From Candidatus Omnitrophota bacterium (lineage in GTDB: Bacteria > Omnitrophota > Gorgyraeia > JAGLLT01): a DNA stretch of 50,134 nucleotides. Made by a program: the position numbers and the translations under genes. This document shows, in pieces, positions 1,564-44,918 of this stretch. The DNA lies in the NCBI GenBank assembly GCA_023140385.1, contig JAGLLT010000008.1:1-50134 (forward strand). Direction: 5' to 3'. The notes under the pieces were generated by a model. That model searched no databases and had not been told where the DNA came from. It saw only the letters and a list, made by a program, of their open reading frames with translations. How positions within the stretch are numbered: position 1 is the first letter of the stretch; every line of letters starts with the position of its first letter.

Positions 1564-1662
1564 CCCAAATTGGAGCAAGGTCACTATTCCCTTTAGGGAG
1601 CTTAAGCACCATTGTTATCAGAGGTAAAATTATTTTATAGTGTTTTATAAAGGAAAATATTA

Positions 1663-2010: not shown

Positions 2011-4400
2011 GACTTTATTCAGGAAGCTCCCAGCAGTTTATAAATGATACTATACAAAATCAAATTGCAGAAAAATTGAAATTAAATTTTTTTGATTACT
2101 TTCGATTTTATCCATCTCCTTCAGAAGTTAATTCTTGGAGAAATTCTCTAAGGGCCATTTCTCAAGTATTTCAACATGCAAATTTATTAGATCATGGTGT
2201 TATTTTAGAATATCAGTTACCCCTAACATCAAAAAGATTAGACTGTTTGATTTGCGGTAAGGATACGAATAAATCAGATAATGCTGTTATTGTTGAGCTG
2301 AAGCAATGGGAAAAGTGTAAAGAGGCAGAAGGAAAAAACGAAGTACTTACCTGGGTCGGAGGGGCGGAAAGAGAAAGATTGCATCCATCAGTACAAGTAG
2401 GCCAATACCAGATGTACTTAGCTGACACGCACACCGCTTTTTATGTTGGCGCAACTCCTGTTGCATTGAATGCTTGCAGCTATTTACATAATTATAATTA
2501 TTATGCGGAAGATATAATCTTTGCGAATAAATTCCAAACAACATTGGAAAAGTATCCCTTATTTACTGCTGATGATGTTGATAAACTAACGGACTATTTG
2601 ATTGCTAAATTGAGCCATGGTGAAGGGCTTGGCGTTCTTCAAAAAATAGAGGAAAGTGAATATCGCCCCAGTAAAAAATTGATGGAACATGTGGGCAATG
2701 TTATAAAAGGAAAATCAGAGTATATTCTACTTGATGAACAACTTGTAATTTATGATAAAGTTTTTTCTTCCGCGAAAAAAGGGTTTACCGATAAACAAAA
2801 AACAGTGCTTATAATTAAGGGGGGTCCAGGTACCGGCAAATCAGTTATTGCTATTAATTTAATGGCTGATTTGTTGTTAGGCGGGCATAATGCTCATTAT
2901 GCTACTGGGTCTCGAGCGTTTACGGAAACATTAAGAAAAATCATTGGAACAAGGGGATCTGTACAATTTAAGTATTTTAATAGTTATTCTAGCGCTGAGG
3001 CGAATGTAATAGATGTATTAATTGCTGATGAAGCACATCGAATACGCAGTACAAGCAATAGCAGATTTACTCCTAAACACAAAAAGTCATTACTTCCCCA
3101 AATAGAGGAGTTATTGCATGTCGCGAAAGTGGCAGTGTTCTTTATAGATGATGATCAAATAGTACGGCCTAATGAAATTGGTTCCGTAGAACATATAAAA
3201 GAATATGCAAGAAAAGAAAAATGCAAAGTTTGTGAGTATGAATTAACAGCTCAATTTAGATGCAATGGATCGGATGCCTTTGTTAATTGGGTTAATAATA
3301 CCCTGGATGTAAAAAGAACAGCAAATGTTATATGGGATCAACACGAAGAATTTGATTTCAAAATATTATCATCACCGCTTGATTTAGAAAATGCTATAAG
3401 GCGAAAAGTAAGCAAGGGCTTTACTGGCAGGGTGACCGCAGGATTTTGTTGGGATTGGTCTTTGCCTAATTTAGATGGTACTCTTAAGGATGATGTTGTT
3501 ATCGGAGACTATAAACGCCCCTGGGATGCTAAGCCGGAAGCGAAAAAGTTAGCGCCTGGAATACCGAAAGCTGCCTTGTGGGCATATGATCCTAACGGTA
3601 TCGATCAAATAGGGTGTGTTTATACTGCACAAGGTTTTGAATTTGATTATGTGGGTGTTATTTTCGGAGAAGATTTGATATATGATTTTGACAGTCAAGA
3701 ATGGATAGGTAATAAACATAATTCATCAGATAGTGTAGTAAAGCGTTCTGGTGAGAAGTTTGTAAGTCTTGTCAAAAATACTTACAGAGTATTGCTTAGC
3801 CGAGGCATGAAAGGATGTTATGTTTATTTTATGAATAAGGATACTGAGAGATTTTTCAAATCACGGATAGAAAAAAGAGAAAAGATAGAAATTTTAGATG
3901 AATCTTCTGTTGAAAGTGATTTAGAAAAAATTGTAATTGAAATTGAAGAAAAGGCTAAGTATAAAGAATATTTACCCGTATACTCATTAGAAGCTGTTGC
4001 CACATCTTTTGGTAAAGAAGAATTTATTGAAAAATTAGGGTGGATGCAAGTTAAGGATACTATAAAAATTAGTGAAAATATGTTTATTGCGAAAGTTGTA
4101 GGAAAATCTATGGAGCCTACCATTCCTGATAATAGTTGGTGTGTATTTAGAAAAGAGCGGGGAGGATCCAGGGAAGGGAAAATTGTTTTAGCTAATTGCA
4201 ATGCACTTCGAGACCCCGAATCACAAGGAACATATACAATAAAGAAGTATCATAGTGAAAAAGAATATTTTGAGGATGGAACATGGCAGCATAAAAAAAT
4301 AATTCTCTCGCCAGATAATAAAGATTTTGATAATATAGTTCTTGAGAATGTTTCGGCAGGTGACTTTCAGATTGTTGGTGAATTTGTTTGTGTTTTGTAA
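2007..4400 (+). CDS. DUF2075 DNA/RNA helicase fused to C-terminal S24 (LexA-like) peptidase domain
   Basis: Walker A IIKGGPGTGKSVIAINL, VLIADEAHR, Q-F-R motif; C-term VVGKSMEPTIPDNSWCVFR...GTYTIKKY with the S24 Ser/Lys pattern; overlaps the upstream MazG stop. Confidence 0.8.
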   Translation: MRLYSGSSQQFINDTIQNQIAEKLKLNFFDYFRFYPSPSEVNSWRNSLRAISQVFQHANLLDHGVILEYQLPLTSKRLDCLICGKDTNKSDNAVIVELKQWEKCKEAEGKNEVLTWVGGAERERLHPSVQVGQYQMYLADTHTAFYVGATPVALNACSYLHNYNYYAEDIIFANKFQTTLEKYPLFTADDVDKLTDYLIAKLSHGEGLGVLQKIEESEYRPSKKLMEHVGNVIKGKSEYILLDEQLVIYDKVFSSAKKGFTDKQKTVLIIKGGPGTGKSVIAINLMADLLLGGHNAHYATGSRAFTETLRKIIGTRGSVQFKYFNSYSSAEANVIDVLIADEAHRIRSTSNSRFTPKHKKSLLPQIEELLHVAKVAVFFIDDDQIVRPNEIGSVEHIKEYARKEKCKVCEYELTAQFRCNGSDAFVNWVNNTLDVKRTANVIWDQHEEFDFKILSSPLDLENAIRRKVSKGFTGRVTAGFCWDWSLPNLDGTLKDDVVIGDYKRPWDAKPEAKKLAPGIPKAALWAYDPNGIDQIGCVYTAQGFEFDYVGVIFGEDLIYDFDSQEWIGNKHNSSDSVVKRSGEKFVSLVKNTYRVLLSRGMKGCYVYFMNKDTERFFKSRIEKREKIEILDESSVESDLEKIVIEIEEKAKYKEYLPVYSLEAVATSFGKEEFIEKLGWMQVKDTIKISENMFIAKVVGKSMEPTIPDNSWCVFRKERGGSREGKIVLANCNALRDPESQGTYTIKKYHSEKEYFEDGTWQHKKIILSPDNKDFDNIVLENVSAGDFQIVGEFVCVL

Positions 4401-28624: not shown

Positions 28625-28712
28625 GGAGAGGTGCGTGAGCGGCTTAAACGGCACGCTTGGAAAGCGTGTGTACTTAACGGTACCCTGGGTTCGAATCCCA
28701 GCCTCTCCGCCA
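28625..28712 (+). tRNA. tRNA-Ser(GGA), integration target
   Basis: GGAGAGGTGCGTGAGCGG...anticodon loop TTGGAAA...TGGGTTCGAATCCCAGCCTCTCCGCCA. Confidence 0.93.
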
Positions 28713-29014
28713 GCCTAATCCCATAAGCAGTTAATTCCCTTGACGTTATATATAAAAGTAGTAAAATCAAGGTGTTAACTGCTTTTTGTATTTTTATATA
28801 AATCTTGCATATTTTTATGTTTTTTGAGACTTGTGACACGAAAATGACACGTTATAGCAAATAATAGTTTAACCTAAGGGAGGTTATTAATGGATGGTTA
28901 TGATGCTGCGTTTGTAGCCCCCTGCACATAGACTTCCCTTATTAACAAGTTGACTACCGAAGTTAACGTAGTCACTAAAAATATTTCCAACATAATGTCT
29001 ATGGTAGAAAAAAG
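28709..29014 (+). repeat. ~306-bp leader direct repeat, copy 1
   Basis: Gap-free match with 35383-35688 (offset 6674); 28716-28818 appears identical to its partner. Confidence 0.9.
28725..28784 (+). promoter_or_regulatory. promoter enclosed by 10-bp inverted repeat
   Basis: AAGCAGTTAA ... TTGACG-16 nt-TAAAAT ... TTAACTGCTT; duplicated at 35399-35458. Confidence 0.55.
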
Positions 29015-29207
29015 CTGGTCTCAACAAAAACTCGCTCAGGAAGCAGGATTATCCTTTAATGCAATAACAAAAATTGAACAGGGACTAGCAAAATATCCAA
29101 CACTAAAAACTCTTAGCAAATTGTCTAATGTTTTTCAAATTGGCATAGATGAATTAGTTGGAAGAGGAAAAACAAATTTTATTAGGATTAAAAATGGAAA
29201 ATTATGA
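28950..29207 (+). CDS. XRE-family HTH regulator with leader-derived N-terminus
   Basis: WSQQKLAQEAGLSFNAITKIEQGLAKYPTLKTLSKLSNVFQIGIDEL; frame extends upstream to an ATG at 28890 interrupted by TAG at 28929. Confidence 0.8.
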   Translation: MTTEVNVVTKNISNIMSMVEKSWSQQKLAQEAGLSFNAITKIEQGLAKYPTLKTLSKLSNVFQIGIDELVGRGKTNFIRIKNGKL

Positions 29208-32200
29208 TAATACTCACAAAATCTTAACAAAAACTGGACCTATTAGAAAAGGCTTCGATTATCAAGATGCTTGTGCTGCCTTCTTGTTTGTAAAATGGCT
29301 TAGGTACCCAGCAGAAAAAAAATGGGTTAAATTGGAAGCAAAAGAGTGTGGCTTTTTGGATGACATTGTTTTTGTAAGTAAGGATAATACACTATTTCTA
29401 AAACAAATTAAGTATTCATGTCATCCAGAAACCCCGCAAGATGAATGGAGCTTGGAGTCAATATTAAAAGAACCACAAGGGAAAAAAACCAAAAGACAGT
29501 CTTTATTTAAAAGATGGTTTCTGTCTTGGCAGGAATTTCGAGAAAAAAAGTCATTTCGCGAAGTAAAGGCAGAATTACTAACCAATCGAAAAGCCTCTGA
29601 AAACATAATTAATGTTGCTGAAATGTGTGATAACTCTACGGCAATAATTATTGATATCAAAAAGCTAAAAAAATTGTCTCCCGAGCATTATCAAGAGATG
29701 CTTAGGCAAATAAAGCCCTACAAAAAGAAGCATTTAAGGACTTTTTTTAATAATTTTAAATTTAATTTTGACCACTATTCTTTAGAAAGAATGTGGACTC
29801 AAACAGAAGTGATTTTTAAAGAACTGGGTGGGAGTGGTGGTGCATGGTTAGCTTTTAAGGAAAAAATTAGAGAGTGGGCTATAGAACAAGATAAGCCATC
29901 TAAAGAAGGCTTAATAAAAATAGAGGACTTAAGAAGTGCGGCAGGGTGGGAAAAATTAAAAGCGTTAAATCAAGAATTTTCAATGCCAGACGACTTTGAG
30001 TTGTTTGATGAAAGAATTGAGAAAAAGTTAATAAGTGATTTTAAAAAACGAAAAGGTGGCCTGCATATTTTGTATGGACTTCCTGGAGTTGGCAAGAGTA
30101 CTTTTTTGTCACACTTATATAAAAAGTTAGAAGGAGCCAATATCCCGGTATTAAAGCACCACTATTTTTTAACAACGAGCGATCCTGATTTCTATGAACG
30201 ACTTGAACATGAAAGGGCAGAAGAAGGATTAAAGAACGAAATTTACCAAAAATTTAGAGATTTATTGGGAGAACATGCTAACCAAAATCAAAAACAGGCA
30301 AAATTACAAGATTGGTTATCTGCAATCAATAAACAGTTTAATGCCAGAAAACAAGCCTTAGTAATAATCGTTGATGGGCTTGACCATGTTAAAAATTATA
30401 GTGACATAAAAAACTTGAATAAATTTTTGATGCAGATACTTCCGTGCTTAGAAGAAATGTGGATTGTTTTAGGAACACGGTTGATGTCTGAAGAAAATCT
30501 TCCCCCAATAATATATGAACATTGTTCATTTAAACAGTGGATAGAAGTTAAACCATTTTCAAAAAGTGTCGTTGCAAATCTAATACGAAAAAACATTAAA
30601 AGTAAAAAGTTAAGGATTCAAAAGGACAGATATATTATTAGAAAATTTACAAACAAATTTTATCAGCTTACAGAAGGACATCCATTGCATATTAGGTATT
30701 CACTTGAAATCTTATTTGAATTTGGTAAAACAAAAAATATTACAGATTATGATTTAGCTAATTTACCACCCTATCAGGGAAATATCGAGAAATACTACAA
30801 CATATTATGGTCTAAATTAAGACAAGAAGGTAAAAGCGTTGCGATCTTAATAGCAGGTGCTAATTTTTTCTTAAAAGGCCATCAAGTCTTTGAAGTTCTT
30901 GTTTCCAATGCAGTACGTATGGATGCGCTTTTAGAAGGTTTTGGGCAAATAAAACATTTATTGAAAGAGATTCGTCGAGGGGTCACTTTTTTCCACACGA
31001 GTTTTTCGGAATACATTAGACAAACGCAAGAGTTTCAAATTTCGAACCCTACAATAAAAAAAGAGCTAAGGAATTGGCTTACAAGCAAAGCTCCGGAAGA
31101 GCTGTGTTGGCAACAATGGCTTAGATTAGAATATGAGTTAGGAAATTATGAGTTAGTTCTTTCGAATTTAACAAAAGATTGGGTTATAGAAGCGATAGAA
31201 AAACAATGCTCTCTAAAGCTAATTAATGAACATTTGAGTATGGGCATAGATGCCGCCCTTCAACAGGGAAATTTTTCAAAAGGAGCATTCCTGGGGTTAT
31301 TGTTGAATGTGGTTGATAATATAACAGTAGAAAATGAAGATGATTATGAAAAGTTGATAATGTTTTTATTGAAAGAAAAAGATGGAAAAGATATAGATAG
31401 GTATATATTCGAAGAAAACATTCCAAGCTATTCCTCTTCCAAATTAAATGCTTTAGCTACACTGGCAGAAGAAAAAGGAAGAATGGATATTTTGGAGGTA
31501 ATATTTGAGGAGCTTAACACTGGATATGATAGAGATGAAGAATACTCAATGCGAAATCGAGGGCAACGAGAAATAACATTAAGTAAAGTTGTGGCATATT
31601 TAAATATTGAGCCTAAAAGGGTTTTAAATTGGATAAGGAAATTTGATAACAGTGTAAAAAAGGAAGAATTGCTATCATGCTATGTGTTTGGATTGCTTAA
31701 AGCTCGCAAGTTTACAATAATTGAAAATTTGATCAGCAAAAAAATATCACAAGAAGAAAAAAATATTGTATTGAATCAGTATACGAAATATTGTTTCGAA
31801 AATAAAATTGACATTAGTGGCTTTATTTTAAAAAATGGTAAACACATTGTGGGCTTACAAGAAATGTTATTGCTTGCCGTGCTTAATAAGCTCCCTGGAG
31901 ATGTGAGTACTTTAATCCCAGAGCATCAAGTATTCCCACTTGCATTAGAAGATTACAAAAGTAAAGAAGTTTCAGCTCTTGCTATAACCTTTTTTAATTG
32001 TTACACGAGTGCTTTAATACTTAGTTGTGGAGCAAAGAAAACTGTTGTTGAGCATTGGATTAAAAGCGGGGAATTTTTTTCTTGGAGCCGTGAAGCAGCT
32101 AAGAGCCTTGTTGAATTAGGGATGGAACATGGAGAAAAAATAAAAAATGGAATAAATATTAAATATAGCGATCTAATTGACAAATTGAAAGATTTACATG

Positions 32201-35200
32201 TTCTAGATTGGAGAGAAGATAGAGATATCTACGGAATATATAAATCATTTAGAACAGCGGCAGAAAAAGTTTTTAACTTATTAAAAAATATTAAGCGATG
32301 GCAAAACGATAATTTCAAAATTGCTGAAAATGAATTTATTCAATATTGCGATTCAGATTTTTTTGGCAAATATGTAATGTTGAAAAACTTAGCTTATGAA
32401 CGAGAACCGTTTTTAGAGGAAAAAGCATACGTGAAATTTATCACCGAAGAAGAGAAAAGCCTTAAAAATGATGTTATATATTTTAGGGATAGAGTGGAGC
32501 AATATGTAGATTTAGCACATCTTGCGGGCTTACATAAGGACAGCGATAGAATAAAAGTTTTTACTAAAAAGGCAATTTTAAATATGCTAGCTTATGGGGC
32601 TAAAGATGCTTATCATTCTGATGTCTTAGAGTGCGTAGAAGCGTGTCATAAGGCAGGGTCGAAAAAAGGAGATTCATGGCTAAAAAGAATAGCTCCATTG
32701 ATAGAACAAGCAGAAAATTATACCGAAGGTGCTAAGTATTTACAAATAGATCTTGCAGAAAAACTTGCTTTAATAAACCCAGAAAGCTTAAAAAGCTATT
32801 ATATATATCATGCTAATAATGAAAATTTATTTTTGGCACAGGATATTTTTCCCTTTATTGTTTCTATAACTGTTAAAAATAACGAAATTGATAAAGCTGT
32901 ACTAAAAACAGCAATAGATAGAGAGTCAATTGAAAAATTACAGGACATGGCTAAAAAAAATCCTACAGTAGAAACTATTTTAAATGAGAACAGGGAATAT
33001 TTTAATAGTTTAGTAACTTTTCCTCCCAAAGAAGAGCGGGGCACGAACTGCAACCATTCGTCTTTAGCCAATGATTTAACTGATTATAAGTCGATTGCGC
33101 CAAGTAATCTCAAAAACCATTTATTAAATATAAAAGATTTATATCAGAGAAATAGGTATCTGAGCGGATGGAGTCAGTGTTGGCTTTCTGAGGAGGGAGA
33201 AGAAGAGGCGTATAAAATAACGATAGATTGGATCGAAGAAACGGGAATAGAAAAGGCCGATCACGAAGTGCTAGATTTGTTATATCCGTTAGCTTTTAAA
33301 TTTGAAAACAAAGAAAAGAGCTTCTTTTTATTATGTAATGCCCACACTAAAGGATATGGGTGGTCAGGAAGATTTTTTTCAAGAAAAGAAGCAGTTGTAA
33401 AAAGATGGGATTTTTTAAAGCAACATTTCCCTGAAAAATTTAAGGATTTTTGTAAAGAAACATTAACTAAGGTTGACCGAGAGGGAAATTCAAAATTTGT
33501 TGCATATTTGCCTGTTCCAAGAGGTGTAGAATTTATGACTTTTTTTAATGTTCTGGACATCGCAGAACAAATGACGGAAGTTGCAGTAACCTTTGCAGAA
33601 GATTTAATGGCAGATTTAAGCATTCCAAAGCTTGTGTGGCAAGAGTGGAGGGGTAAAAATTCTTTAGATGTTCTTCTTGAGCGATTTAAGTGGCCGAGTC
33701 CACTTGTGCGTGAAAGAGCAGCTACAGCATTATGTAATCTTATCTCTAATGAAGAGACATCGCAATTAGTTGTTACACAACTATTAAAATGGGGAAGTTT
33801 GCAAGGGCTTGAAAGCATAACAGTAATGACATTGCTCCCCTTTGTGAAATCAGCAAGACTTAATAAATGCAACGGATTGGTGGCCTATAAGACAATAAAA
33901 GATAACATTAATAATTCTTCGATAAATTCAGAATTTCTCTTAAGAGAAGTTGCATTAGCAATAGAAGGAGAAGTTCTAAAAGAAGAAGAGTTTGTTGAAG
34001 AAAGAGAACCGGAAAATCTAGAATCTTGTCCAAAGGATTATAAACCTAATAAATTTTTCCTTCGTACTCAAAAAGCTTTTTTGCCACCCATTCATGTGAT
34101 AAGGGCAGAAAAAATCGAAAAAAATACAGGGTTTAAATTTATACAACAGTGGGCTTGGGATGCAGATCGAATTAGAAAAAAGATTGGTATTGAAGAATCT
34201 TTAAGGGATGTAATGGATTTCATGGGAGGAAGATATCAACCTAGTATGCCAGCATTTTCTAGTAAAATGTCGGAAATTTATAGGTCAGCTTTTTTGAGAA
34301 CGCTGTTTCTTTGTTATAAGGAGAATAAAATACCAAAAGGTCTTTTATTTAAATGGACGTTCTCATTGTGTCCAATAGATATCAATTTTTGGGAAATTAA
34401 TGAACGCAATTCTCCTGGTTGGTGGCCAGGCTTAAGCCAAAAATCAAATGGGAAAATAGATATTTCTCAAGGGAAAATTCTTACAGACTTAGAAAGCTTA
34501 TTGGATAAACTAGATTTAGATGAAAATAAGATAGTTGGTCTGCATGGCCCCGCTAAACCTTTTGACGGATGGCATAGTGAAAATCTTGGCACTAAAATTC
34601 TCGTGGTACCTTTTGCTTATGAAATAAAAGGAGCGCAGTTACCAAGCGCAAAAGAAATAGGAGAAGTTATTGCTTACTCTCCTGTTATCGAAGTTCCTTC
34701 AATAACAAAAAAGCCCTTTTGTTTTTTTGAGCAAGAAAATATGCCTTTAGACGAAAGTAACGTTGGAGGGATTAAAGTTAAAGATGCTGTAATATTTCCT
34801 TTAGTTGCGCGGATACACACGCATCCAATTAACTATTGGAAAGCATGTATTGGGCGCCATGCATCTTTTGGTATTGCCGAAAACTTATTAAATGAGGGGC
34901 TTAAGCAGGGATACGAAGCAAATAATTGGTTCTATATGTTTAACGAAGAAAAAGTAATCATAAGTTATGCTTGGAATATAGGAATAATAGAACGGCATAA
35001 TAGTGATTTTGATGCTCCATCTGGACAAATAATAGAAATAAAGAGAACATGGTTAAAAAAAATTTTAGATGAACAAAAGCTAAGGGTAGGATATTTTATT
35101 AAAATGAAATTTATTCATAGACAATATTTACATGAAAAAGCTAGTATTTATGAGGAAGATAAATTACTTAATTTTTCTCCTATAATTGTTCAAAGGGGTA

Positions 35201-35208
35201 AGTGGTGA
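29194..35208 (+). CDS. Avs-like STAND NTPase with N-terminal Cap4-like nuclease domain
   Basis: GFDYQDACAAFLFVKWL...LEAKECGFLDDIVFV...LFLKQIKY nuclease-like E/D/QxK; Walker A YGLPGVGKSTFL; Walker B ALVIIVDGLDH; ~1400-aa helical C-terminus. Confidence 0.75.
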   Translation: MENYDNTHKILTKTGPIRKGFDYQDACAAFLFVKWLRYPAEKKWVKLEAKECGFLDDIVFVSKDNTLFLKQIKYSCHPETPQDEWSLESILKEPQGKKTKRQSLFKRWFLSWQEFREKKSFREVKAELLTNRKASENIINVAEMCDNSTAIIIDIKKLKKLSPEHYQEMLRQIKPYKKKHLRTFFNNFKFNFDHYSLERMWTQTEVIFKELGGSGGAWLAFKEKIREWAIEQDKPSKEGLIKIEDLRSAAGWEKLKALNQEFSMPDDFELFDERIEKKLISDFKKRKGGLHILYGLPGVGKSTFLSHLYKKLEGANIPVLKHHYFLTTSDPDFYERLEHERAEEGLKNEIYQKFRDLLGEHANQNQKQAKLQDWLSAINKQFNARKQALVIIVDGLDHVKNYSDIKNLNKFLMQILPCLEEMWIVLGTRLMSEENLPPIIYEHCSFKQWIEVKPFSKSVVANLIRKNIKSKKLRIQKDRYIIRKFTNKFYQLTEGHPLHIRYSLEILFEFGKTKNITDYDLANLPPYQGNIEKYYNILWSKLRQEGKSVAILIAGANFFLKGHQVFEVLVSNAVRMDALLEGFGQIKHLLKEIRRGVTFFHTSFSEYIRQTQEFQISNPTIKKELRNWLTSKAPEELCWQQWLRLEYELGNYELVLSNLTKDWVIEAIEKQCSLKLINEHLSMGIDAALQQGNFSKGAFLGLLLNVVDNITVENEDDYEKLIMFLLKEKDGKDIDRYIFEENIPSYSSSKLNALATLAEEKGRMDILEVIFEELNTGYDRDEEYSMRNRGQREITLSKVVAYLNIEPKRVLNWIRKFDNSVKKEELLSCYVFGLLKARKFTIIENLISKKISQEEKNIVLNQYTKYCFENKIDISGFILKNGKHIVGLQEMLLLAVLNKLPGDVSTLIPEHQVFPLALEDYKSKEVSALAITFFNCYTSALILSCGAKKTVVEHWIKSGEFFSWSREAAKSLVELGMEHGEKIKNGINIKYSDLIDKLKDLHVLDWREDRDIYGIYKSFRTAAEKVFNLLKNIKRWQNDNFKIAENEFIQYCDSDFFGKYVMLKNLAYEREPFLEEKAYVKFITEEEKSLKNDVIYFRDRVEQYVDLAHLAGLHKDSDRIKVFTKKAILNMLAYGAKDAYHSDVLECVEACHKAGSKKGDSWLKRIAPLIEQAENYTEGAKYLQIDLAEKLALINPESLKSYYIYHANNENLFLAQDIFPFIVSITVKNNEIDKAVLKTAIDRESIEKLQDMAKKNPTVETILNENREYFNSLVTFPPKEERGTNCNHSSLANDLTDYKSIAPSNLKNHLLNIKDLYQRNRYLSGWSQCWLSEEGEEEAYKITIDWIEETGIEKADHEVLDLLYPLAFKFENKEKSFFLLCNAHTKGYGWSGRFFSRKEAVVKRWDFLKQHFPEKFKDFCKETLTKVDREGNSKFVAYLPVPRGVEFMTFFNVLDIAEQMTEVAVTFAEDLMADLSIPKLVWQEWRGKNSLDVLLERFKWPSPLVRERAATALCNLISNEETSQLVVTQLLKWGSLQGLESITVMTLLPFVKSARLNKCNGLVAYKTIKDNINNSSINSEFLLREVALAIEGEVLKEEEFVEEREPENLESCPKDYKPNKFFLRTQKAFLPPIHVIRAEKIEKNTGFKFIQQWAWDADRIRKKIGIEESLRDVMDFMGGRYQPSMPAFSSKMSEIYRSAFLRTLFLCYKENKIPKGLLFKWTFSLCPIDINFWEINERNSPGWWPGLSQKSNGKIDISQGKILTDLESLLDKLDLDENKIVGLHGPAKPFDGWHSENLGTKILVVPFAYEIKGAQLPSAKEIGEVIAYSPVIEVPSITKKPFCFFEQENMPLDESNVGGIKVKDAVIFPLVARIHTHPINYWKACIGRHASFGIAENLLNEGLKQGYEANNWFYMFNEEKVIISYAWNIGIIERHNSDFDAPSGQIIEIKRTWLKKILDEQKLRVGYFIKMKFIHRQYLHEKASIYEEDKLLNFSPIIVQRGKW

Positions 35209-35382: not shown

Positions 35383-35688
35383 GCCAGTGTAATCCCATAA
35401 GCAGTTAATTCCCTTGACGTTATATATAAAAGTAGTAAAATCAAGGTGTTAACTGCTTTTTGTATTTTTATATAAATCTTGCATATTTTTATCTTTTTTA
35501 AAATTTATGTCACGAAATTGACACGCCATAACAAAAGATAATTTAATTTAAAGGAGGTCATTTATGGATGGCCATGATAATGCGTTTATAGCCCCCGACA
35601 CATGGATCCTCCCTATTGCTAAGTTGACAGATGAAGTTAACGTATTCACTAAAAATATTTCCAATGTGACGTCTATGGTAGAAAAAAG
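35383..35688 (+). repeat. ~306-bp leader direct repeat, copy 2
   Basis: Matches 28709-29014. Confidence 0.9.
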
Positions 35689-36850
35689 TTTGGATTTTAG
35701 ATGTAATAGTGCACCAGCTCGCGCGATATTTGATTTGAAGGATACTCTTTCTATAGCAAGTAACAATATTTCATCTATTATATCATGTGCTCATAATTTT
35801 GCAGAAATTGCAGAAACGCCGTCATCACTTTTGTTGGACAGTCAGAAAATAGCTTCTCTTTCGTCTGATTTAGTTGTTGACGCAACAAGCTCAATTTTAG
35901 CCACTACGGCATCAATGCTTAGCAGTGTTCGCAGTAATATTGAGAGTCTTCATATTACTGATTATAATGGAGTAGACGTCTTTAGCATGGAAAAACTGTC
36001 CGCATTATCTATTCCAGACCAACCAGTTGCTATAAATTCATTATCTCAAGATAGTCTTATTTCGTTGGGCAATAGTCTGCAGAATAATACCTTTACAGTT
36101 AAAAGTTTAATAAACACCTCCTTGGCGACATCACGGCTTAACGTAGAGATTTTTACCAACCCCGTGGAAAGTGTAGATACTTATCTTGCTGATATGAACG
36201 AAACAACTATACATTTTAACTCACTATCAGCTTCTGTATATAATGAAATGACTTGTTCTCCTTTGATTGATACAAATAGTTTACTCTTCCAGGCGCCTAC
36301 AATTGAACCATATGCTGCGATATCTGCTGTTGCTGTTCTTGGGGGCTTGGATGAAGATGCTTTAGATCGATTTTGTGTCAAAAGTACAGATAACTTCCTT
36401 GATGCATTAGGAGATGGACTTGAGACGCGTTTGCAAGCAGTGAATCCACAATTAGCCAGCGTATATCGAGAGGGTATGGTGGCGGTAAAATCAGGCCATG
36501 AAGGATGGATTCGTCACGCAGGGGTGTCTTTCAGAACTTTACTTGATCATCTTCTGCGTTATTTGGCGCCTGATAAAAAACTTAATTCATACTTTGAAAA
36601 TCCAAAAGATAATATGATAGACGGAGAATTTAGCCGCAATTCGAAACTTCGATATATATTTCGTGAAATCGCTTGTGGGTCATATTCGAAAATGGCAGAA
36701 CAAGATATAAAACTTGCCGAGGCAACATTTTTCCCATCAAACGAAATAGTGCATAAGCTATCATCACCACTTTCAGAACAACAAATGCGCGTATTTTGCC
36801 GTCGTGTTCAAGGATGCGTATCCGTTATTTTGGAAGTAGCGGGGCATTAA
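35564..36850 (+). CDS. hypothetical protein; C-terminus resembles the predicted pPIWI-associating nuclease family
   Basis: LETRLQAVNPQLASVYREGMVAVKSGHEGWIRHAGVSFRTLLDHLLRYLAPD...; N-terminal 42 aa come from the repeated leader. Confidence 0.45.
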   Translation: MDGHDNAFIAPDTWILPIAKLTDEVNVFTKNISNVTSMVEKSLDFRCNSAPARAIFDLKDTLSIASNNISSIISCAHNFAEIAETPSSLLLDSQKIASLSSDLVVDATSSILATTASMLSSVRSNIESLHITDYNGVDVFSMEKLSALSIPDQPVAINSLSQDSLISLGNSLQNNTFTVKSLINTSLATSRLNVEIFTNPVESVDTYLADMNETTIHFNSLSASVYNEMTCSPLIDTNSLLFQAPTIEPYAAISAVAVLGGLDEDALDRFCVKSTDNFLDALGDGLETRLQAVNPQLASVYREGMVAVKSGHEGWIRHAGVSFRTLLDHLLRYLAPDKKLNSYFENPKDNMIDGEFSRNSKLRYIFREIACGSYSKMAEQDIKLAEATFFPSNEIVHKLSSPLSEQQMRVFCRRVQGCVSVILEVAGH

Positions 36851-36878
36851 TCGTTAGGGAATAACAGGTATTGGATAA

Positions 36879-37808
36879 ATGATATTGCTATATGTTGCTA
36901 TTTCTATACCCTTTATAATTGCCCTCTTCTCTCTTCTTAAAGACTGGAACGATGAGAAGCGGAGAATTTATATATCATTACTCATATTAACAATATGTGC
37001 CTTTATGGTAAGTTGTCTATGCACCTATTTCTCTGGGAGGGAAAGTGAAGAATTAAAAAAAGAAAATTATTTGAAAGATCGAAGGCAAATAACCCTAACT
37101 CTCCTCTGTAGCAACAGACTCCCTCTAAAACGCCCACTATCAAAAATAGAAAAAAATCTAAGAGCTAATAATTACGATTCAGCAATAGCTTTTGCCGAAG
37201 CAATTTTATTATATGCGAACACATTAGCGGACGGTGAAAGGCAGCAGGTAGTTCGTGATATATATATTTATTTTATCTATAATGCAGAAGATCGCAGGGA
37301 AAAAATTAAGCTTCTTGAATTAATAAATATAGAATATCCTGAAGAATTTGCCGAAGTGCATCGTTTGCTAGGGCAGCTTTATGCTGAAGAGGGACGCTTT
37401 AAGGATGCGATGCTAATTTTGAATAAAGCATTATATATAGAAGATGACAATAGTATAACGTATCATTTACTTGGTCGCGTATCTTTTGCCGAAGGAGATT
37501 GGGAGAAAGCGCTAAAATATTACAAAAGAGGAATAGAAAAAAATGAGAAATATGTAAATTTAAATATTGAAATAGGAGATATTATTTGGTGTTACACAAA
37601 TGACGTGGAAAAAGCAAAAGGGTACTACGAGAAGGCCATTGAGAATAAAGACATAAAAGATTGGTATTATTCTGCATATGAAGAGGATTTAATTAAGAGA
37701 CAATCTGTGGTCAGTAACAAGGATCTTCAATACAATATAAAACCAGCAGATAAAATCACTTTCTTTTTAAAAGAAACACCCTTTGTTGTAGAAGAAAGTA
37801 AAAAGTAA
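36879..37808 (+). CDS. membrane protein with TPR repeats
   Basis: Two N-terminal TM helices; AEVHRLLGQLYAEEGRFKDAMLILNKALYIEDDNSITYHLLGRVSFAEGDWEKALKYYKRGI. Confidence 0.7.
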   Translation: MILLYVAISIPFIIALFSLLKDWNDEKRRIYISLLILTICAFMVSCLCTYFSGRESEELKKENYLKDRRQITLTLLCSNRLPLKRPLSKIEKNLRANNYDSAIAFAEAILLYANTLADGERQQVVRDIYIYFIYNAEDRREKIKLLELINIEYPEEFAEVHRLLGQLYAEEGRFKDAMLILNKALYIEDDNSITYHLLGRVSFAEGDWEKALKYYKRGIEKNEKYVNLNIEIGDIIWCYTNDVEKAKGYYEKAIENKDIKDWYYSAYEEDLIKRQSVVSNKDLQYNIKPADKITFFLKETPFVVEESKK

Positions 37809-38524: not shown

Positions 38525-39580
38525 ATGGGCGTAGTTTACAAAAGAAAAGATAGCCCTTGCTGGTGGCTGGCTTATTCAGCGGGAGGGCAAAGGATAAGAG
38601 AAAGCTCCGGTACTGCTTCGAAATTACTTGCCAGAGAAATCCTGATCCGAAAGGAATCCGAAGTTTTACTTTCCGGGGGCAGCAGAGTTTTCTTAAAAAA
38701 ATCTGTAGAGGTCTTTGTTTCTGATTATTTAGAATGGATAAAGGTTAACCGTCGTGAACATACTCTTCGGAGTTACACGACTATTCTAAAAACCTTCGTT
38801 AATTTTCTCAAGGACTATCCTAATATCAAAAACCTATCAGATATTACGTCCAAACTGCTTGAAAATTATAAACAGTATAGATTAGCTCAAGCTAAAACCT
38901 GTACACTAAAAAATCATGTAATTGTTTTAAAGGCCTTTTTTTGTAAAGCAGTAGAGTGGGATTGTTTATCTGAAAATCCGGCTAAAAATTTAAAATCGGT
39001 CGAAATAATTGATTCGAAACCAATTAAAGTATTAACGGAAGAAGAGTACACTGGATTTATGACTACCTGCAAAAGTGAATTTAAAGAATTTTATCCTATG
39101 TTTTATACTTTTATACACACCGGATTAAGAAAATCAGAGCTTCTTAGTCTTGAGTGGAAGGATGTAGATTTTGAAAGAGGTTTAATATATATACGCAATA
39201 AAGAAAATTTTCGGCCTAAAGGAATAAATAAAAAAACAGGTAAAGCCAAAGAAAGAATAATTCCCATACACGATAATCTCAAGCGGGTATTAACAAACTT
39301 ACCGAAAAACAACCCGGTTCTATTTGGGCCATATTCAAAACATATGCCAAGACGAGTTCTTATAAGAATAGCAAAAAGAGCAAACATCACCGGCCTTACC
39401 AGATTGCATGAGCTTAGACATTCATACGCCACATTTCTATTGAAAAAAGGCGTGGATATATATAAAATAAAAGAGTTATTGGGTCATTCTGATATAAGGG
39501 ATACTATGAAGTATGCACATTTACCCACAGTTCATATGAAAGAGGATGTGAAGGTATTGGAAAATTTAGATAATGCTTGA
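38525..39580 (+). CDS. tyrosine recombinase/integrase
   Basis: FIHTGLRKSELLSLEWKDVD; LHELRHSYATFLLKKGVDIYKIKELLGHSDIRDTMKYAH (R..HxxR..H/Y). Confidence 0.95.
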   Translation: MGVVYKRKDSPCWWLAYSAGGQRIRESSGTASKLLAREILIRKESEVLLSGGSRVFLKKSVEVFVSDYLEWIKVNRREHTLRSYTTILKTFVNFLKDYPNIKNLSDITSKLLENYKQYRLAQAKTCTLKNHVIVLKAFFCKAVEWDCLSENPAKNLKSVEIIDSKPIKVLTEEEYTGFMTTCKSEFKEFYPMFYTFIHTGLRKSELLSLEWKDVDFERGLIYIRNKENFRPKGINKKTGKAKERIIPIHDNLKRVLTNLPKNNPVLFGPYSKHMPRRVLIRIAKRANITGLTRLHELRHSYATFLLKKGVDIYKIKELLGHSDIRDTMKYAHLPTVHMKEDVKVLENLDNA

Positions 39581-39653: not shown

Positions 39654-40499
39654 ATGATAAAAGGTAACAAGAATAAGCCATACTTCAAAAGTGATAACTT
39701 CGAACTCTATTTAGATGACTGTAGGGATTCTTTGAATAATTTGCCTGAAGAATCAGTGGATATGATATTTGCGGACCCCCCGTATAATTTATCCAATGGC
39801 GGTTTTACCTGCCATGCCGGCAAAAGAGTTCCTGTTAATAAAGGCAGTTGGGACGAAAGCAAGGGTTTAGATAAAGATTTAAAGTTTCACATAGCTTGGA
39901 TAAACGCATGTAGGCGCGTTTTAAAGCCTAATGGTACAATTTGGATTAGCGGAACTTATCACTCAATTTATCGCTGTGGATATGCGTTGGAAGTATCAGG
40001 ATATCATATATTAAATGATATAAGTTGGCTTAAGCCTAACGCGGCCCCCAATTTAAGCTGCCGCTTTTTTACCGCAAGTCATGAAACAATAATTTGGGCC
40101 AGAAAAAATAAAAAAGCTAAGCATGTGTTTAATTATAATCTTATGCGCAACGGTGAATGGCCGGGAGATATTATAAAGAAACCCAATAAGCAAATGCGTT
40201 CTGTATGGAGCATTAACACACCTAAACCATTTGAGAAAACATTTGGCAAGCATCCGACTCAAAAGCCGGAAGATTTGCTTAAAAGAATTGTTTTGTCGAG
40301 TACAAACAAAGAACAACTTGTGCTAGATCCCTTTACGGGTAGCTCTACAACAGGACTTGTTGCACATTTATATGGTAGAAAATTTATTGGTATAGATAAT
40401 GAAAGATCTTACCTTGATTTATCGATAAAAAGATTTAATTTACTTAATGCCAACGTAAAGAAAAAACGTGATAGAAAACCAAAGGCGGTACTTGTATGA
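39654..40499 (+). CDS. type II DNA methyltransferase (beta class, DpnIIB-like order)
   Basis: SVDMIFADPPYNLSNGG (DPPY) followed later by LVLDPFTGSSTTGLVAHLYGRKFIGID (FxGxG). Confidence 0.92.
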   Translation: MIKGNKNKPYFKSDNFELYLDDCRDSLNNLPEESVDMIFADPPYNLSNGGFTCHAGKRVPVNKGSWDESKGLDKDLKFHIAWINACRRVLKPNGTIWISGTYHSIYRCGYALEVSGYHILNDISWLKPNAAPNLSCRFFTASHETIIWARKNKKAKHVFNYNLMRNGEWPGDIIKKPNKQMRSVWSINTPKPFEKTFGKHPTQKPEDLLKRIVLSSTNKEQLVLDPFTGSSTTGLVAHLYGRKFIGIDNERSYLDLSIKRFNLLNANVKKKRDRKPKAVLV

Positions 40500-41017
40500 T
40501 AAAGGGCGGCAAAGGTGGAGGCAAAACAATAACGGGCTTAAGATTTGAGTCTAGAATATCTCTTGAAAAAGCAATTTCTTCTCTTTCCCATTATAAAGTT
40601 TCAGATGACACTATTTATTATAAAGATAAGAAGGTTGCAGAATTATACCAAAAACACAAATTATATAAAAACTTATTAGAGCCAAATGATATTGATTTTA
40701 AAGCTATCATTTCTAAAAAATTACTTCCTGATGAAGCGATCTTAATAATAAAAGATAAAACACTCTTTATTATAGAAATCAAATTTCAAGAAGTGGCCGG
40801 TTCTGTTGATGAGAAGCTGCAGACTTGTGATTTTAAGAATAAGCAATACAAAAAATTGCTAACCCCTTTAAACATATCTGTTAAATATGTTTATGTTCTT
40901 AATGACTGGTTCAAAAAGAAAGAGTATAAAGATGTATTAGATTATGTGAAATCGGTTGACTGCTACTATTTCTTTAATGAACTTCCTTTAGATTTCCTAG
41001 ACTTACCCATGCCTTAA
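40496..41017 (+). CDS. PD-(D/E)XK type II restriction endonuclease
   Basis: ATGA overlap with the methyltransferase; GGGKTITGLRFESRISLEKAI; DEAILIIKDKTLFIIEIKFQEVAGSVDEKLQTCDFK. Confidence 0.85.
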   Translation: MIKGGKGGGKTITGLRFESRISLEKAISSLSHYKVSDDTIYYKDKKVAELYQKHKLYKNLLEPNDIDFKAIISKKLLPDEAILIIKDKTLFIIEIKFQEVAGSVDEKLQTCDFKNKQYKKLLTPLNISVKYVYVLNDWFKKKEYKDVLDYVKSVDCYYFFNELPLDFLDLPMP

Positions 41018-41035
41018 CTATCTGTTTTAGTTTCA

Positions 41036-42898
41036 ATGCACCACGATAAAATAAAGAGTGCAGAGCAAAAGTTAAACAACATAAGCAATATATTCCAAAG
41101 TAATACGTTACTGCAAAAACCCACTAATCAAATTGAGGAGAAAGCTATCGTGAGAGGTAGTATAAAAAATTGTGAAGACCTTCATTTTTCAGAGTTTTGT
41201 TCAGAAAGAAGAATGTTTATTGTGCCCACATTTCAACGTGCTTACAAATGGACCACTAAAAATATAAGCGATTTATGGGAAAGTATTACATCTTATCCAA
41301 GTAAGTATTTTATTGGTAATATTGTCTGCTTGGAAGGGGCAAGTAATATAGATGGAAGAATGTTAATTATTGATGGACAACAAAGATTGATAACTGTCTC
41401 TTTAATTTTAACGGCTATAAGAGATGAGTATAAAGAAATCGCCAAAACTGTCAAAGGGGAAGACAAAGAAAGCATTGAAGAAAGTTTAGATACAATAAAA
41501 AATATCCTGACACATAAGGAACTCAAAAGGACGGCAAAAAGAGAGCCAAGAATTTTACCTGGAAGAAAGAATGCTTGTGATGTGTATATTAAAATTCTAG
41601 ATAGTAAAATAAATGTTAATAATAAGGCAGAACTAAAAAACTTAGATGGAAGCCAAATAAAATATGTTAAAAACTACAAAACAATAAAAAAGCTTCTTGC
41701 AGAATATATAAAAGATAATAAGCTTGATAAGCTAGAAGATATATTGGGCAGAGTTTTAGATTTGGTAATAATAACTATCATATGTGAAACTGATAGCGAT
41801 GCCTATAATATATTCGAAGGGTTAAATGCGACTGGAATAGGTCTATCTGTTGCTGATTTAGTAAAAAATGCTGTAATGTATTCAGCTGGCAGTACTGATG
41901 CGAGAAAAAGCGTAGAACAAAATTGGGAACTGATGGAAAGTGTCTTTGAAAAAACAACGGTCTCGCTAATTCCCAAGTTTTTAAGGCATCAATGGATATC
42001 GCACGAAGGGTATATTCAGGGTAGTAAGCTCTTTGACAGCATTAAAAGTAAAAAACTAAAAGGCAAGAGCAACGCAAAGATAGTTAATTATGTGAAGTCG
42101 ATATTAAACGATGCCAAGCTATATTCTGATTTACGTTCTGACAACGATGATGAATTAAAGCGATATTTCAATCAAAAAAGTATAGAAATTTTGAAGTGGT
42201 TCCAAGTTCTTAATATAGATCAAGTTTATGAGCTTATTTTGGCGTTTTGTAACAAGTTTATTTCATCTAAGGGCATATATACCGAGGGGCAATTATGTGC
42301 GGATTTAGATAGGCTGTGGTCTTTTTCTTTTAGAGCAAAGCTTCTTTCGTTAAATCCTTCTGATTATGAGAAAGTTTTTGCAGAACAATGTAAGTTAACC
42401 GAAAGATATAATAAAAAAGAAATGAACAGAATGACAGCAAAGTTTTATTCGACGCTTAAGAAAAAAGTTTCAAATGACAATGATTTTATAGACAAATTTG
42501 CTAGTGAAATATGGTATAAAGATGGTTCAAAAAACAGTTTGATTTATCATATTTTCAATACTATGTTCAAAAAGAAAAATCCAGGCATACAGCTTGTAAG
42601 TCCAACGATAGAGCATATATTACCTAAAAAACCTCAAAAATGGGGTTATGAACAAAGCGAAATAAAAGAGTTTGTTGATAACATAGGTAATTTAAGTTTA
42701 CTTTATGATAGTGACAATAAGAAAACTGGTAACGAAAAAATGGATGATAAGGTTAAAAAAGTGTATTCTGTATCGCCATTCGCTATTAATAATGAGATAG
42801 CGAGATATAAAAAAGATTTTGAAGAAGATCCTGAAAAAGCGATAGAAAAAAGAGCGAAAGCATTGGCAAGAGAAGCAGCAGAGCTTTGGAAATTATAG
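41036..42898 (+). CDS. DUF262/DUF1524 (GmrSD-like) protein
   Basis: VPTFQRAYKWTTKNISDLW...MLIIDGQQRLITVSLIL; C-term SPTIEHILPKKPQKWG...NIGNLSLL HNH. Confidence 0.88.
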   Translation: MHHDKIKSAEQKLNNISNIFQSNTLLQKPTNQIEEKAIVRGSIKNCEDLHFSEFCSERRMFIVPTFQRAYKWTTKNISDLWESITSYPSKYFIGNIVCLEGASNIDGRMLIIDGQQRLITVSLILTAIRDEYKEIAKTVKGEDKESIEESLDTIKNILTHKELKRTAKREPRILPGRKNACDVYIKILDSKINVNNKAELKNLDGSQIKYVKNYKTIKKLLAEYIKDNKLDKLEDILGRVLDLVIITIICETDSDAYNIFEGLNATGIGLSVADLVKNAVMYSAGSTDARKSVEQNWELMESVFEKTTVSLIPKFLRHQWISHEGYIQGSKLFDSIKSKKLKGKSNAKIVNYVKSILNDAKLYSDLRSDNDDELKRYFNQKSIEILKWFQVLNIDQVYELILAFCNKFISSKGIYTEGQLCADLDRLWSFSFRAKLLSLNPSDYEKVFAEQCKLTERYNKKEMNRMTAKFYSTLKKKVSNDNDFIDKFASEIWYKDGSKNSLIYHIFNTMFKKKNPGIQLVSPTIEHILPKKPQKWGYEQSEIKEFVDNIGNLSLLYDSDNKKTGNEKMDDKVKKVYSVSPFAINNEIARYKKDFEEDPEKAIEKRAKALAREAAELWKL

Positions 42899-43260: not shown

Positions 43261-43379
43261 TAGATAAACGCGAATTAGCAAACATGATTATAGACTAATG
43301 AAGAAAATATAGAAAATTGTGAGACGATTCTGATATAGTTGTTATTTTGATAGTGTACTAATATAAGAAGGAGGATGGA

Positions 43380-43814
43380 ATGAACAGAAAAGATTGGGCT
43401 CTATTCGCTATAAGCTATGCAGGAGAAGGCCACCTTTCCCCCGCCCAACTTCAAAAAAGTTTGTTTTTGCTTGGAGAAAATAAAAAATCAGCTGTTCGTA
43501 AAGATTTCTACAAATTTGCACCGTATAACTATGGGCCATTTTGCAAAGATATTTATTCTGATACGGGAAGCTTAGAAGCAGATGGTTTGATTAAATTTAG
43601 CCGCCCTATAGGGAGAAGTTGGGTTGGATATTCTCTAACGGGGGAAGGCAAAAAGCGGATAAAAGAGCTAAAAGATGCAGCAATAGCTGATGATTTAAAA
43701 TACCTCTCCGAAATTATAAGGTGGGTTAAAAGCATTTCATTTAAACAACTTCTAACAGCAATTTATAAAGAATACCCTAAATATAAAATTAACAGTCTTT
43801 TTTCAGGAGTATAA
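43380..43814 (+). CDS. Panacea/SocA (DUF4065)-like protein
   Basis: LSPAQLQKSLFLLGE...FYKFAPYNYGPFCKDIYSDTGSLEADGLI; stop immediately followed by the next ATG. Confidence 0.55.
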   Translation: MNRKDWALFAISYAGEGHLSPAQLQKSLFLLGENKKSAVRKDFYKFAPYNYGPFCKDIYSDTGSLEADGLIKFSRPIGRSWVGYSLTGEGKKRIKELKDAAIADDLKYLSEIIRWVKSISFKQLLTAIYKEYPKYKINSLFSGV

Positions 43815-44600
43815 ATGACTTTAATAGTTGGTGTTAAATGTAATAATGGGATAGTAATTGGAGCCGATAGCGCCTCAACTAATACTACAAGCACGGGTCA
43901 GCAAACTGCAATGCAACCCACCAAGAAGTTAGATATCATTGACGATAATATAATTGTTGGTATTTCTGGATCTGTTGGGTTAGCGCAATTCTTTAAAGAG
44001 GAAGTCGAAAAGCTTTGGAAGAATAATGCTTTTTCAAATAAGGGAGTAGAAGAAGCAAGAATTAAAATTACTGGTGCATTCAGAACACATCTGATAAGAG
44101 AGGCAAAATTCGCGCAAGATTCGAGTAACATGTTAGGTCGATTGCATGAGCAGGAAATTATTTCTCATACTCTTATAGCAATGCCAGTTAAAAAGAATCT
44201 TGTACTTTTAGAATTTCCTGCTACGGGTTCATCTGAAGAAAAGAAAGAAGCGATGCCAACTGTAGCAATTGGATGTGCACAACCAATTGCAGACCCATTT
44301 TTATATTTTCTTAGGAGAGTTTTCTGGCCTGATAGGTTGCCTAGTTTAGTTGAAGGGAAAATAGCGGCTTATTGGGCATTAGATTATAGCATAAAAGCCT
44401 CACCAGCCAATGTTGGATTTCCCGTCAAAATAGCTATATTAGAAAAAAAGGGTAGCGATATAAAAGCTTATGAGTTACCCAAAGAAGAGCTCACATACCT
44501 AGGTAATATTGTTGACGAAGCAGAGAAATATTTAAAAAGATATGAAGCTCCTTCGGCAGAGGAGGACAGAATTGAAATCCCAAAACCTGAGAAAAAATAA
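43815..44600 (+). CDS. proteasome-beta-like Ntn hydrolase
   Basis: M-TLIVGVKCNNGIVIGADSAST: Thr1 after Met, Asp17, Lys at about 36/37 (PTKKLDII), GISGSVGLAQ. Confidence 0.85.
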   Translation: MTLIVGVKCNNGIVIGADSASTNTTSTGQQTAMQPTKKLDIIDDNIIVGISGSVGLAQFFKEEVEKLWKNNAFSNKGVEEARIKITGAFRTHLIREAKFAQDSSNMLGRLHEQEIISHTLIAMPVKKNLVLLEFPATGSSEEKKEAMPTVAIGCAQPIADPFLYFLRRVFWPDRLPSLVEGKIAAYWALDYSIKASPANVGFPVKIAILEKKGSDIKAYELPKEELTYLGNIVDEAEKYLKRYEAPSAEEDRIEIPKPEKK

Positions 44601-44891: not shown

Positions 44892-44918
44892 TGGGTTCGA
44901 ATCCCAGCCTCTCCGCCA
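44892..44918 (+). repeat. attR: duplicated 3' end of tRNA-Ser(GGA)
   Basis: tgggttcgaatcccagcctctccgcca, identical to 28686-28712. Confidence 0.92.

What the first reader, a model, noticed from the sequence alone, without database searches (positions are those of the whole stretch)
43380..44600. Panacea/SocA-like protein in operon with a stand-alone proteasome-like Ntn hydrolase: candidate proteolytic conflict system
The two genes abut with zero spacing inside the island (TAA then ATG). The second encodes M-T-LIVGVKCNNGIVIGADS, which places Thr1, Asp17 and a Lys near 33-37 as in proteasome beta/HslV folds, with no propeptide. The first has the QKSLF...FYKFAPYNYGPF..DIYSDTGSLEADGLI pattern of the Panacea/DUF4065 family. 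Established knowledge: SocA of this family acts as a proteolysis adaptor. An adaptor-like protein coupled to a dedicated peptidase would be a targeted degradation module for defence or element stability. I cannot name a described system with this pairing, but I could not search.
Basis: partly seen in the sequence, partly recalled or inferred. Interest (0 to 1): 0.72.

Follow-up and report, generated by a model that had tools for sequence, protein, structure and literature searches.

The report
Proteasome-like enzyme locked to antitoxin-like partner
A two-gene unit carried by bacterial genome islands and phages always pairs a lone proteasome-like enzyme with a small protein built like known toxin-neutralising antitoxins, which suggests a proteasome relative used as a toxin or effector in genetic conflict.

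Summary
ORF1 (43380-43814) abuts ORF2 (43815-44600) with zero spacing in a tRNA-Ser island of an Omnitrophota MAG. ORF2 is a proteasome-family Ntn hydrolase (PF00227 E=3e-10). Its Thr2-Asp18-Lys38-Gly52 (Thr1-Asp17-Lys33-Gly47) is invariant in relatives that keep the N-terminus, with no propeptide, and it is the genome's only proteasome homologue. ORF1 scores no Pfam family itself, but profile-profile comparison ties it to haloarchaeal proteins previously listed as Panacea antitoxins. Its confident model has one significant PDB match: the DarG antitoxin of DarTG. All 27 loci found through ORF2 have ORF1 immediately upstream; 11 weaker proteasome-like hits have none. The pair spans several phyla and phage contigs, near capsid, portal, integrase or restriction genes. 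In Anaerolineae it is fixed at uvrB-lysA, yet there the hydrolase gene alone was swapped between ~45%-identical alleles while ORF1 and uvrB stayed vertical (AU p=0.003). Neither toxicity, binding nor proteolysis is shown. A 2021 survey of 22 new proteasome-like families reported no informative genomic context; I found no report of this pairing.

The parts
43380..43814 (+). ORF1, 144 aa: Panacea/DarG-C-terminal-domain-like protein, proposed inhibitor (antitoxin) of ORF2
   Evidence: ORF; PDC-M19A 3.4e-16; DarG profile C-terminal half, best 1.2e-6 in relatives; link to PanA WP_050049451.1; hhalign prob 99.8; AF2 pLDDT 93; only significant PDB match 7yk3, DarTG complex
43815..44600 (+). ORF2, 261 aa: proteasome-like N-terminal-nucleophile hydrolase without propeptide; proposed toxin/effector
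   Evidence: PF00227 3.4e-10; Thr2/Asp18/Lys38/Gly52 invariant; AF2 pLDDT 86, proteasome/Anbu fold; only proteasome homologue in the genome
43818..43820 (+). Thr2 codon: predicted catalytic nucleophile after Met removal (Thr1 of the proteasome)
   Evidence: sequence and alignments
43365..43379 (+). Shine-Dalgarno-like AAGGAGG upstream of ORF1; the pair appears translationally coupled (AGGAG at the end of ORF1, TAA/ATG abutting)
   Evidence: direct reading
28686..28712 (+). 3' end of tRNA-Ser(GGA), left direct repeat (att-like) of the island
44892..44918 (+). 27-bp copy of the tRNA-Ser 3' end, right direct repeat of the island, about 290 bp after ORF2
38525..39580 (+). tyrosine integrase of the island element, 92% identical to that of the Zapsychrus island that also carries the pair
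39654..42898 (+). neighbouring defence cargo: N6/N4 methylase, PD-(D/E)XK-like protein, GmrSD-type restriction protein

Best explanation
The pair is a toxin-antitoxin-like conflict module. ORF2 is a proteasome-family Ntn hydrolase whose Thr nucleophile is exposed by simple Met removal, so it has no propeptide and no linked AAA+ partner. ORF1, made first from the same transcript and translationally coupled, binds the hydrolase directly through its Panacea/DarG-C-terminal-type domain and keeps it inactive. A phage or other trigger, or loss of ORF1, frees the hydrolase to cut or otherwise modify a host or phage target. Shown here: the pairing, gene order, conserved catalytic set, folds, mobility, and exchange of the hydrolase gene under a constant ORF1. 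Inferred: binding, inhibition, toxicity, trigger and substrate.
For: Strict linkage: 27 of 27 Ntn-ascertained loci above 45 bits have ORF1 directly upstream, against 0 of 11 weaker proteasome-like hits. Nine of 12 distinct close ORF1 relatives with readable downstream DNA in viral contigs have the Ntn gene directly downstream; ORF1 also occurs without Ntn, and Ntn was never seen without ORF1. ORF1 fold: the only PDB matches with E<0.001 are two 7yk3 (DarTG) chains. Relatives hit the C-terminal half of the DarG profile, the half that alone sequesters DarT in EPEC (PMC7003065). hhalign to a set holding two haloarchaeal PanA proteins named in PMC8832971: prob 99.8, E 2.7e-29. Stand-alone Panacea neutralises toxins directly (PMC10440598). 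Catalytic residues invariant. Context: tRNA island, phage capsid and portal genes, integrase, R-M genes. The window and Zapsychrus islands share a 92-98% identical integrase-methylase-nuclease backbone but carry 40-42% identical pairs at different positions. At uvrB-lysA the Ntn gene alone is replaced (uvrB 97, ORF1 87, Ntn 45% identity; sharp breakpoints; AU p=0.003). Six loci have a broken Ntn with intact ORF1, none the reverse (p about 0.08 by gene length, so weak).
Against: No experiment and no complex model. Isolated proteasome beta subunits are usually inactive until assembled (stated in PMC8665760), so an unassembled Ntn protein may need no inhibitor. A tight antitoxin would be expected to be exchanged together with its toxin, yet ORF1 stays when Ntn is swapped. 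Fixation at uvrB-lysA with purifying selection on both genes (dN/dS about 0.08-0.22 Ntn, 0.09-0.14 ORF1) also fits a host function. The window Ntn has Cys-Ala where nearly all others have Ser-Gly at the Ser129-like position. Broken copies may be MAG errors.
Confidence: 0.5

Rival explanations
1. Adaptor-protease module: ORF1 recognises foreign or toxic substrates, SocA-like, and feeds them to an ORF2 peptidase assembly; defence by targeted degradation.
For: SocA, a Panacea protein, is a ClpXP adaptor (stated in PMC8832971 and PMC10440598). Strict linkage and a lone peptidase without an unfoldase beside it leave room for a dedicated adaptor. Swapping the peptidase under a constant ORF1 is tolerated by a modular adaptor.
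Against: SocA is the exception: other PanAs neutralise without ClpXP or Lon (PMC8832971). The structural relative is an inhibitor. No AAA+ gene is linked, so folded substrates could hardly enter a ring. ORF1 occurs without ORF2 but not the reverse.
Confidence: 0.2
2. Regulatory pair: ORF1 is a winged-helix-like repressor or sensor and ORF2 is the protease that cleaves or removes it on a signal (ImmA-repressor logic), controlling element or prophage genes.
For: Weaker fold matches of ORF1 are MarR/PadR winged-helix regulators and a haloarchaeal relative scores PadR; pairs lie in phages and islands. ImmA-type proteases cleave an HTH repressor (PMC10440598).
Against: Best matches are DarG and Panacea, not DNA-binding regulators; no conserved third gene was seen; the pair sits in phage structural gene blocks and at uvrB-lysA without a common regulon.
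Confidence: 0.12
3. Domesticated housekeeping proteolysis pair, for example a BPH/Anbu-like stress protease with a chaperone-like partner, that occasionally rides on mobile elements.
For: Fixed between uvrB and lysA in an Anaerolineae lineage, purifying selection on both genes.
Against: Patchy: 2 Omnitrophota genomes in draws of 384, few Planctomycetota and Patescibacteria; mobile contexts elsewhere; allele swapping restricted to the Ntn gene; broken copies tolerated.
Confidence: 0.12

Closest known systems
PanAT toxin-antitoxin systems (Panacea/DUF4065; PMC8832971, PMC10440598)
   Same: Two-gene operon, small Panacea-like stand-alone first gene, exchange of the second gene, presence in bacteria and phages.
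   Different: ORF1 falls below the Pfam Panacea cut-off and has YGPF instead of the GPV signature. A proteasome-like partner is not named in the main texts of either paper (their supplementary tables could not be read). Toxicity and neutralisation untested.
DarTG: DarG C-terminal domain (PDB 7yk3; PMC7003065)
   Same: Same fold by Foldseek (E 1.8e-4, prob 1.00) and by the DarG profile; toxin-binding antitoxin domain, small defence operon.
   Different: No macrodomain in ORF1; partner is an Ntn hydrolase, not an ADP-ribosyltransferase; only 15-16% identity.
Proteasome-like families of Fuchs 2021 (HslV, Anbu, BPH, connectase and 22 uncharacterised families, e.g. PMI variants; PMC8665760)
   Same: PF00227 core, Thr1/Asp17/Lys33/Gly47 set, no propeptide, C-terminal H5-like helix, some families in phages.
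   Different: That survey found no informative genomic context; this family has a strict Panacea-like partner. Which of the 22 families it belongs to, if any, could not be tested.
SocAB (Caulobacter)
   Same: Panacea-type protein linked to proteolysis.
   Different: SocA delivers SocB to ClpXP; here the protease-like protein is the operon partner itself, and no adaptor role is shown.
PADLOC PDC-M19A (phage-defence candidate)
   Same: ORF1 matches the first ~125 residues of the 294-residue profile (3.4e-16).
   Different: ORF1 lacks the remaining half; ORF2 matches no PDC model.

Membership tests
Proteasome-like Ntn hydrolases (PF00227) | Score above the family's curated cut-off | tested here: met
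   40.3 bits against 22.4
Proteasome-like Ntn hydrolases (PF00227) | Thr1, Asp17, Lys33, Gly47 set | tested here: met
   T2, D18, K38, G52 invariant in 29 copies
Proteasome-like Ntn hydrolases (PF00227) | Ntn (proteasome beta-like) fold | tested here: met
   AF2 pLDDT 86, Foldseek E 1e-11 to Anbu and proteasome
HslV or 20S beta subunit (equivalogs) | NCBIfam equivalog cut-off | tested here: not met
   13-29 bits against 137-224
HslV or 20S beta subunit (equivalogs) | Cognate HslU/ATPase or alpha subunit gene beside it | tested here: not met
   no such gene among the neighbours; ORF2 is the genome's only PF00227 protein
Peptidase activity / ring assembly | Hydrolyses peptides, forms rings | not testable with these tools
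   needs purified protein
Panacea (PF13274) | Score above the gathering cut-off | tested here: not met
   window ORF1 no hit; 3 of 14 relatives weak, best 4e-4; hhalign to canonical Omnitrophota Panacea not significant
Panacea (PF13274) | Homology to accepted PanA proteins | tested here: met
   WP_050049451.1, a PanA of PMC8832971 over the Pfam cut-off: tblastn E 5e-7 and hhalign 99.8% for a set with it
Panacea (PF13274) | GPV motif | tested here: not met
   YGPF instead, invariant in 26 relatives
DarG C-terminal domain fold | Structural match to the solved antitoxin domain | tested here: met
   7yk3 chains B/D, E 1.8e-4, TM 0.54-0.56 (query)
Type II toxin-antitoxin system (PanAT-like) | Two-gene operon conserved across distant genomes and on mobile elements | tested here: met
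Type II toxin-antitoxin system (PanAT-like) | Second gene toxic, first neutralises by binding | not testable with these tools
   needs expression tests
SocA-type proteolytic adaptor | Delivers a substrate to a protease | not testable with these tools
   needs biochemistry
Anti-phage defence system | Protects against phage | not testable with these tools
   only defence-island and phage-contig context

The most novel reading that the evidence does not exclude
A new class of two-component conflict system in which a proteasome-family Thr hydrolase is itself the toxin or effector, held in check by a Panacea/DarG-type inhibitor, and in which the hydrolase gene is exchanged between alleles while the inhibitor stays; this would be the first functional setting for one of the orphan proteasome-like families.
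Probability: 0.4. Interest if true: 0.85.

Novelty: new variant of a known kind. Interest (0 to 1): 0.68.

Why it matters
Dozens of prokaryotic proteasome relatives have no known role, and the survey that described them found no genomic context to guide tests (PMC8665760). Here one such family has an invariant partner whose nearest structural relative inhibits a toxin. That makes a direct experiment possible: is a proteasome-like protein toxic, or antiviral, and is it silenced by ORF1? If so, proteasome-type hydrolases would join the effector repertoire of toxin-antitoxin and defence systems, and the Panacea network would gain an enzyme class not named for it in the papers read here.

Tried and rejected
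Direct Pfam, NCBIfam and PDB-sequence searches with ORF1 gave nothing useful; the link came from PADLOC, haloarchaeal plasmids and the fold. hhalign against canonical Omnitrophota Panacea domains failed, so I do not call ORF1 a scored Pfam member. Searches of phage and plasmid records with three Ntn sequences found nothing, so no named phage carries it there. Weak Ntn hits (L005, L052-L056, L058, L059, L074-L081) were examined as possible unpaired members and rejected as other proteasome-like families (below 30 bits, no partner). 'It is HslV' was rejected (no second proteasome homologue). An empty integration site was sought in relatives and not found. A fused ORF1-ORF2 structure to read the interface was considered and dropped because a one-residue linker would force ORF1 next to the active site. 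Literature searches for the pairing found none, but preprints and most subscription papers are not held and supplementary tables could not be read.

Full report
What is there. Window 43380-43814 (+) encodes 144 aa (ORF1) and 43815-44600 (+) encodes 261 aa (ORF2); the TAA of ORF1 is followed at once by the ATG of ORF2, in the same frame, and an AGGAG lies at the end of ORF1. The window comes from a 1.5-Mb MAG. Its relative with the same element backbone is Candidatus Zapsychrus exili, phylum Candidatus Omnitrophota.

ORF2. It scores PF00227 above cut-off (3.4e-10) but none of the HslV or 20S equivalog models. It is the only PF00227 protein of this genome, so no HslV or proteasome accompanies it. 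Across 29 copies with an N-terminus, sharing as little as 17% identity, Thr2, Cys9, Asp18, Lys38 and Gly52 are invariant. These correspond to Thr1/Asp17/Lys33/Gly47 of the proteasome, with Thr directly after Met and no propeptide. The AF2 model (mean pLDDT 86, pTM 0.83) matches Anbu and proteasome subunits (E about 1e-11) and has a C-terminal helix after the last strand. A family motif GSGQxxADPFLAFxxRxFW marks it; the window copy has Cys-Ala for Ser-Gly there.

ORF1. Pfam finds nothing in the window protein. PADLOC finds the N-terminal part of candidate PDC-M19A (3.4e-16), and relatives hit the C-terminal half of the DarG profile (residues 166-273 of 329; best 1.2e-6). Nine haloarchaeal plasmid records hold relatives; two are WP_050049451.1 and WP_049938427.1, the very proteins listed as plasmid-borne Panacea homologues in Kurata et al. 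(PMC8832971). The first passes the Pfam Panacea cut-off, and profile-profile comparison of the ORF1 family with a set containing both gives 99.8%. A comparison with canonical Omnitrophota Panacea domains was not significant. The AF2 model of ORF1 (mean pLDDT 93) has just two PDB matches below E 0.001, chains B and D of 7yk3, the M. tuberculosis DarTG toxin-antitoxin complex; their length (187-188 residues) fits the DarG C-terminal domain, which is my inference. That domain mimics ssDNA and holds DarT inactive (Deep et al. 2023, cited in PMC12170906). In EPEC the corresponding domain alone suffices to sequester the toxin (PMC7003065). So ORF1 is a Panacea/DarG-C-terminal-type protein, not a scored member of PF13274.

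The pair is a unit. I searched with ORF2 alone: two overlapping draws of 384 Omnitrophota genomes, a 154-genome order of Anaerolineae, 343 Planctomycetota, 333 Patescibacteria, the genome-contig collection and viral contigs. Every hit above 45 bits, 27 distinct loci, has the ORF1 gene immediately upstream, at most about 15 nt away or overlapping. The 11 genomes with weaker hits (under 30 bits) have none. Searching with ORF1 in viral contigs gave 12 distinct close relatives with readable downstream DNA, 9 of them followed by the Ntn gene. ORF1 without Ntn occurs (L082 between terminase and portal, L087-L089, L096); Ntn without ORF1 was not seen. Distances of the two proteins correlate across 29 loci (r=0.84; outside the Anaerolineae clade r=0.62, both p about 2e-4).

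Where it lives. The window island is bounded by a 27-bp direct repeat of the tRNA-Ser(GGA) 3' end (28686 and 44892) and holds a STAND/Avs1b-like protein, an integrase, a methylase, a PD-(D/E)XK protein and a GmrSD restriction protein. In the Zapsychrus island the integrase, methylase and nuclease are 92-98% identical to the window's, yet the pair is only 40-42% identical and sits between the TPR gene and the integrase instead of after GmrSD: cargo of the same kind, acquired or exchanged separately. Other copies lie beside N6/N4 methylases (L008, L069), a Type I-like restriction helicase (L010), HsdR (L091), an integrase (L070), a capsid gene (L086) and a P22-like portal (L092).

A fixed locus with a swapped enzyme. 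In an Anaerolineae lineage the pair lies between uvrB and lysA (gene names by inspection of the sequences). But at this locus L060, L012 and L014 have uvrB at 96-97% identity and ORF1 at 82-87%, while the Ntn gene is 78% identical between L060 and L012 and only 45-47% to L014. DNA identity falls just after the ORF1 stop and recovers at the end of lysA. uvrB and ORF1 trees unite the three (support 100/100 and 99/96); the Ntn data reject this (p-AU 0.003; the clade was chosen after seeing the identities, so the p value is indicative). The hydrolase has therefore been exchanged under a constant ORF1, as effectors in conflict are. Both genes are under purifying selection. Six loci (L010, L018, L019, L061, L072, L095) have a damaged Ntn gene and intact ORF1, none the reverse. 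By gene length alone this has p about 0.08, and assembly errors are possible.

Mechanism. Best supported, at 0.5: ORF1 is a direct inhibitor and ORF2 a toxin or effector. The adaptor reading (0.2) rests on SocA, the exception among Panacea proteins; other PanAs act without ClpXP or Lon (PMC8832971), and stand-alone Panacea neutralises directly (PMC10440598). A regulator-protease pair and a domesticated protease get 0.12 each. What is shown is linkage, homology, mobility and gene exchange; binding, inhibition, activity and trigger are inferred. Against the favourite: free beta-type subunits are usually inactive until assembled (PMC8665760), and a specific antitoxin should travel with its toxin.

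Novelty. Fuchs et al. described 22 new proteasome-like families and reported no genomic contexts suggestive of function (PMC8665760). Kurata et al. and the follow-up study do not mention a proteasome-like or Ntn partner in their main texts. Searches for the pairing returned no paper, with the limits of the library. I file it as a new variant of a known kind (PanAT/DarG-like pair) with a proteasome-like partner.

Noticed in passing
window 29158-35208: 2016-aa protein with a NACHT/STAND ATPase and an Avs1b-like match (6.8e-22) plus an endonuclease-effector-like N-terminus, the first gene of the same island.
   Followed up: partly
window 28709-29008 and 35383-35682: A 300-bp, 85% identical direct repeat inside the island suggests two tandem elements at the same tRNA-Ser site.
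   Followed up: no
window 35564-37808 and L007 9569-11828: A pP_pnuc_1 (predicted pPIWI-associated nuclease) protein with a TPR partner, conserved as a pair in the Zapsychrus island (71% and 77% identity); possible separate defence pair.
   Followed up: partly
L082 3389-4219: An ORF1-like gene between terminase large subunit and portal genes of a phage contig, with a different C-terminal extension and no Ntn partner.
   Followed up: partly
L097 780-2835 and L098 4824-7196: Divergent Panacea-like genes followed by similar 454-455-aa proteins without PADLOC matches (the L098 one also without Pfam match): another candidate Panacea-linked module.
   Followed up: partly
PADLOC profile PDLC03184 (hit by ORF1, window 43380-43814): The PADLOC 'Specificity_I' profile PDLC03184 carries an ORF1-like domain at its C-terminus (about 430-549 of 554), so this inhibitor-like domain may be fused to Type I specificity subunits.
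   Followed up: no
L101 (G047) 1501-3059: Panacea-like gene in a genome of the window's own family, followed by a 181-aa membrane-type protein and a 141-aa protein: a different partner from ORF2.
   Followed up: no
L096 5001-6220: Two adjacent Panacea-like genes in an 86-kb viral contig, with no Ntn gene.
   Followed up: no
L005 / L074 (G063): Another lone proteasome-like Ntn protein (239 aa, MTLAISIIADDGIALAADS) in an Omnitrophota genome, without a Panacea partner.
   Followed up: partly
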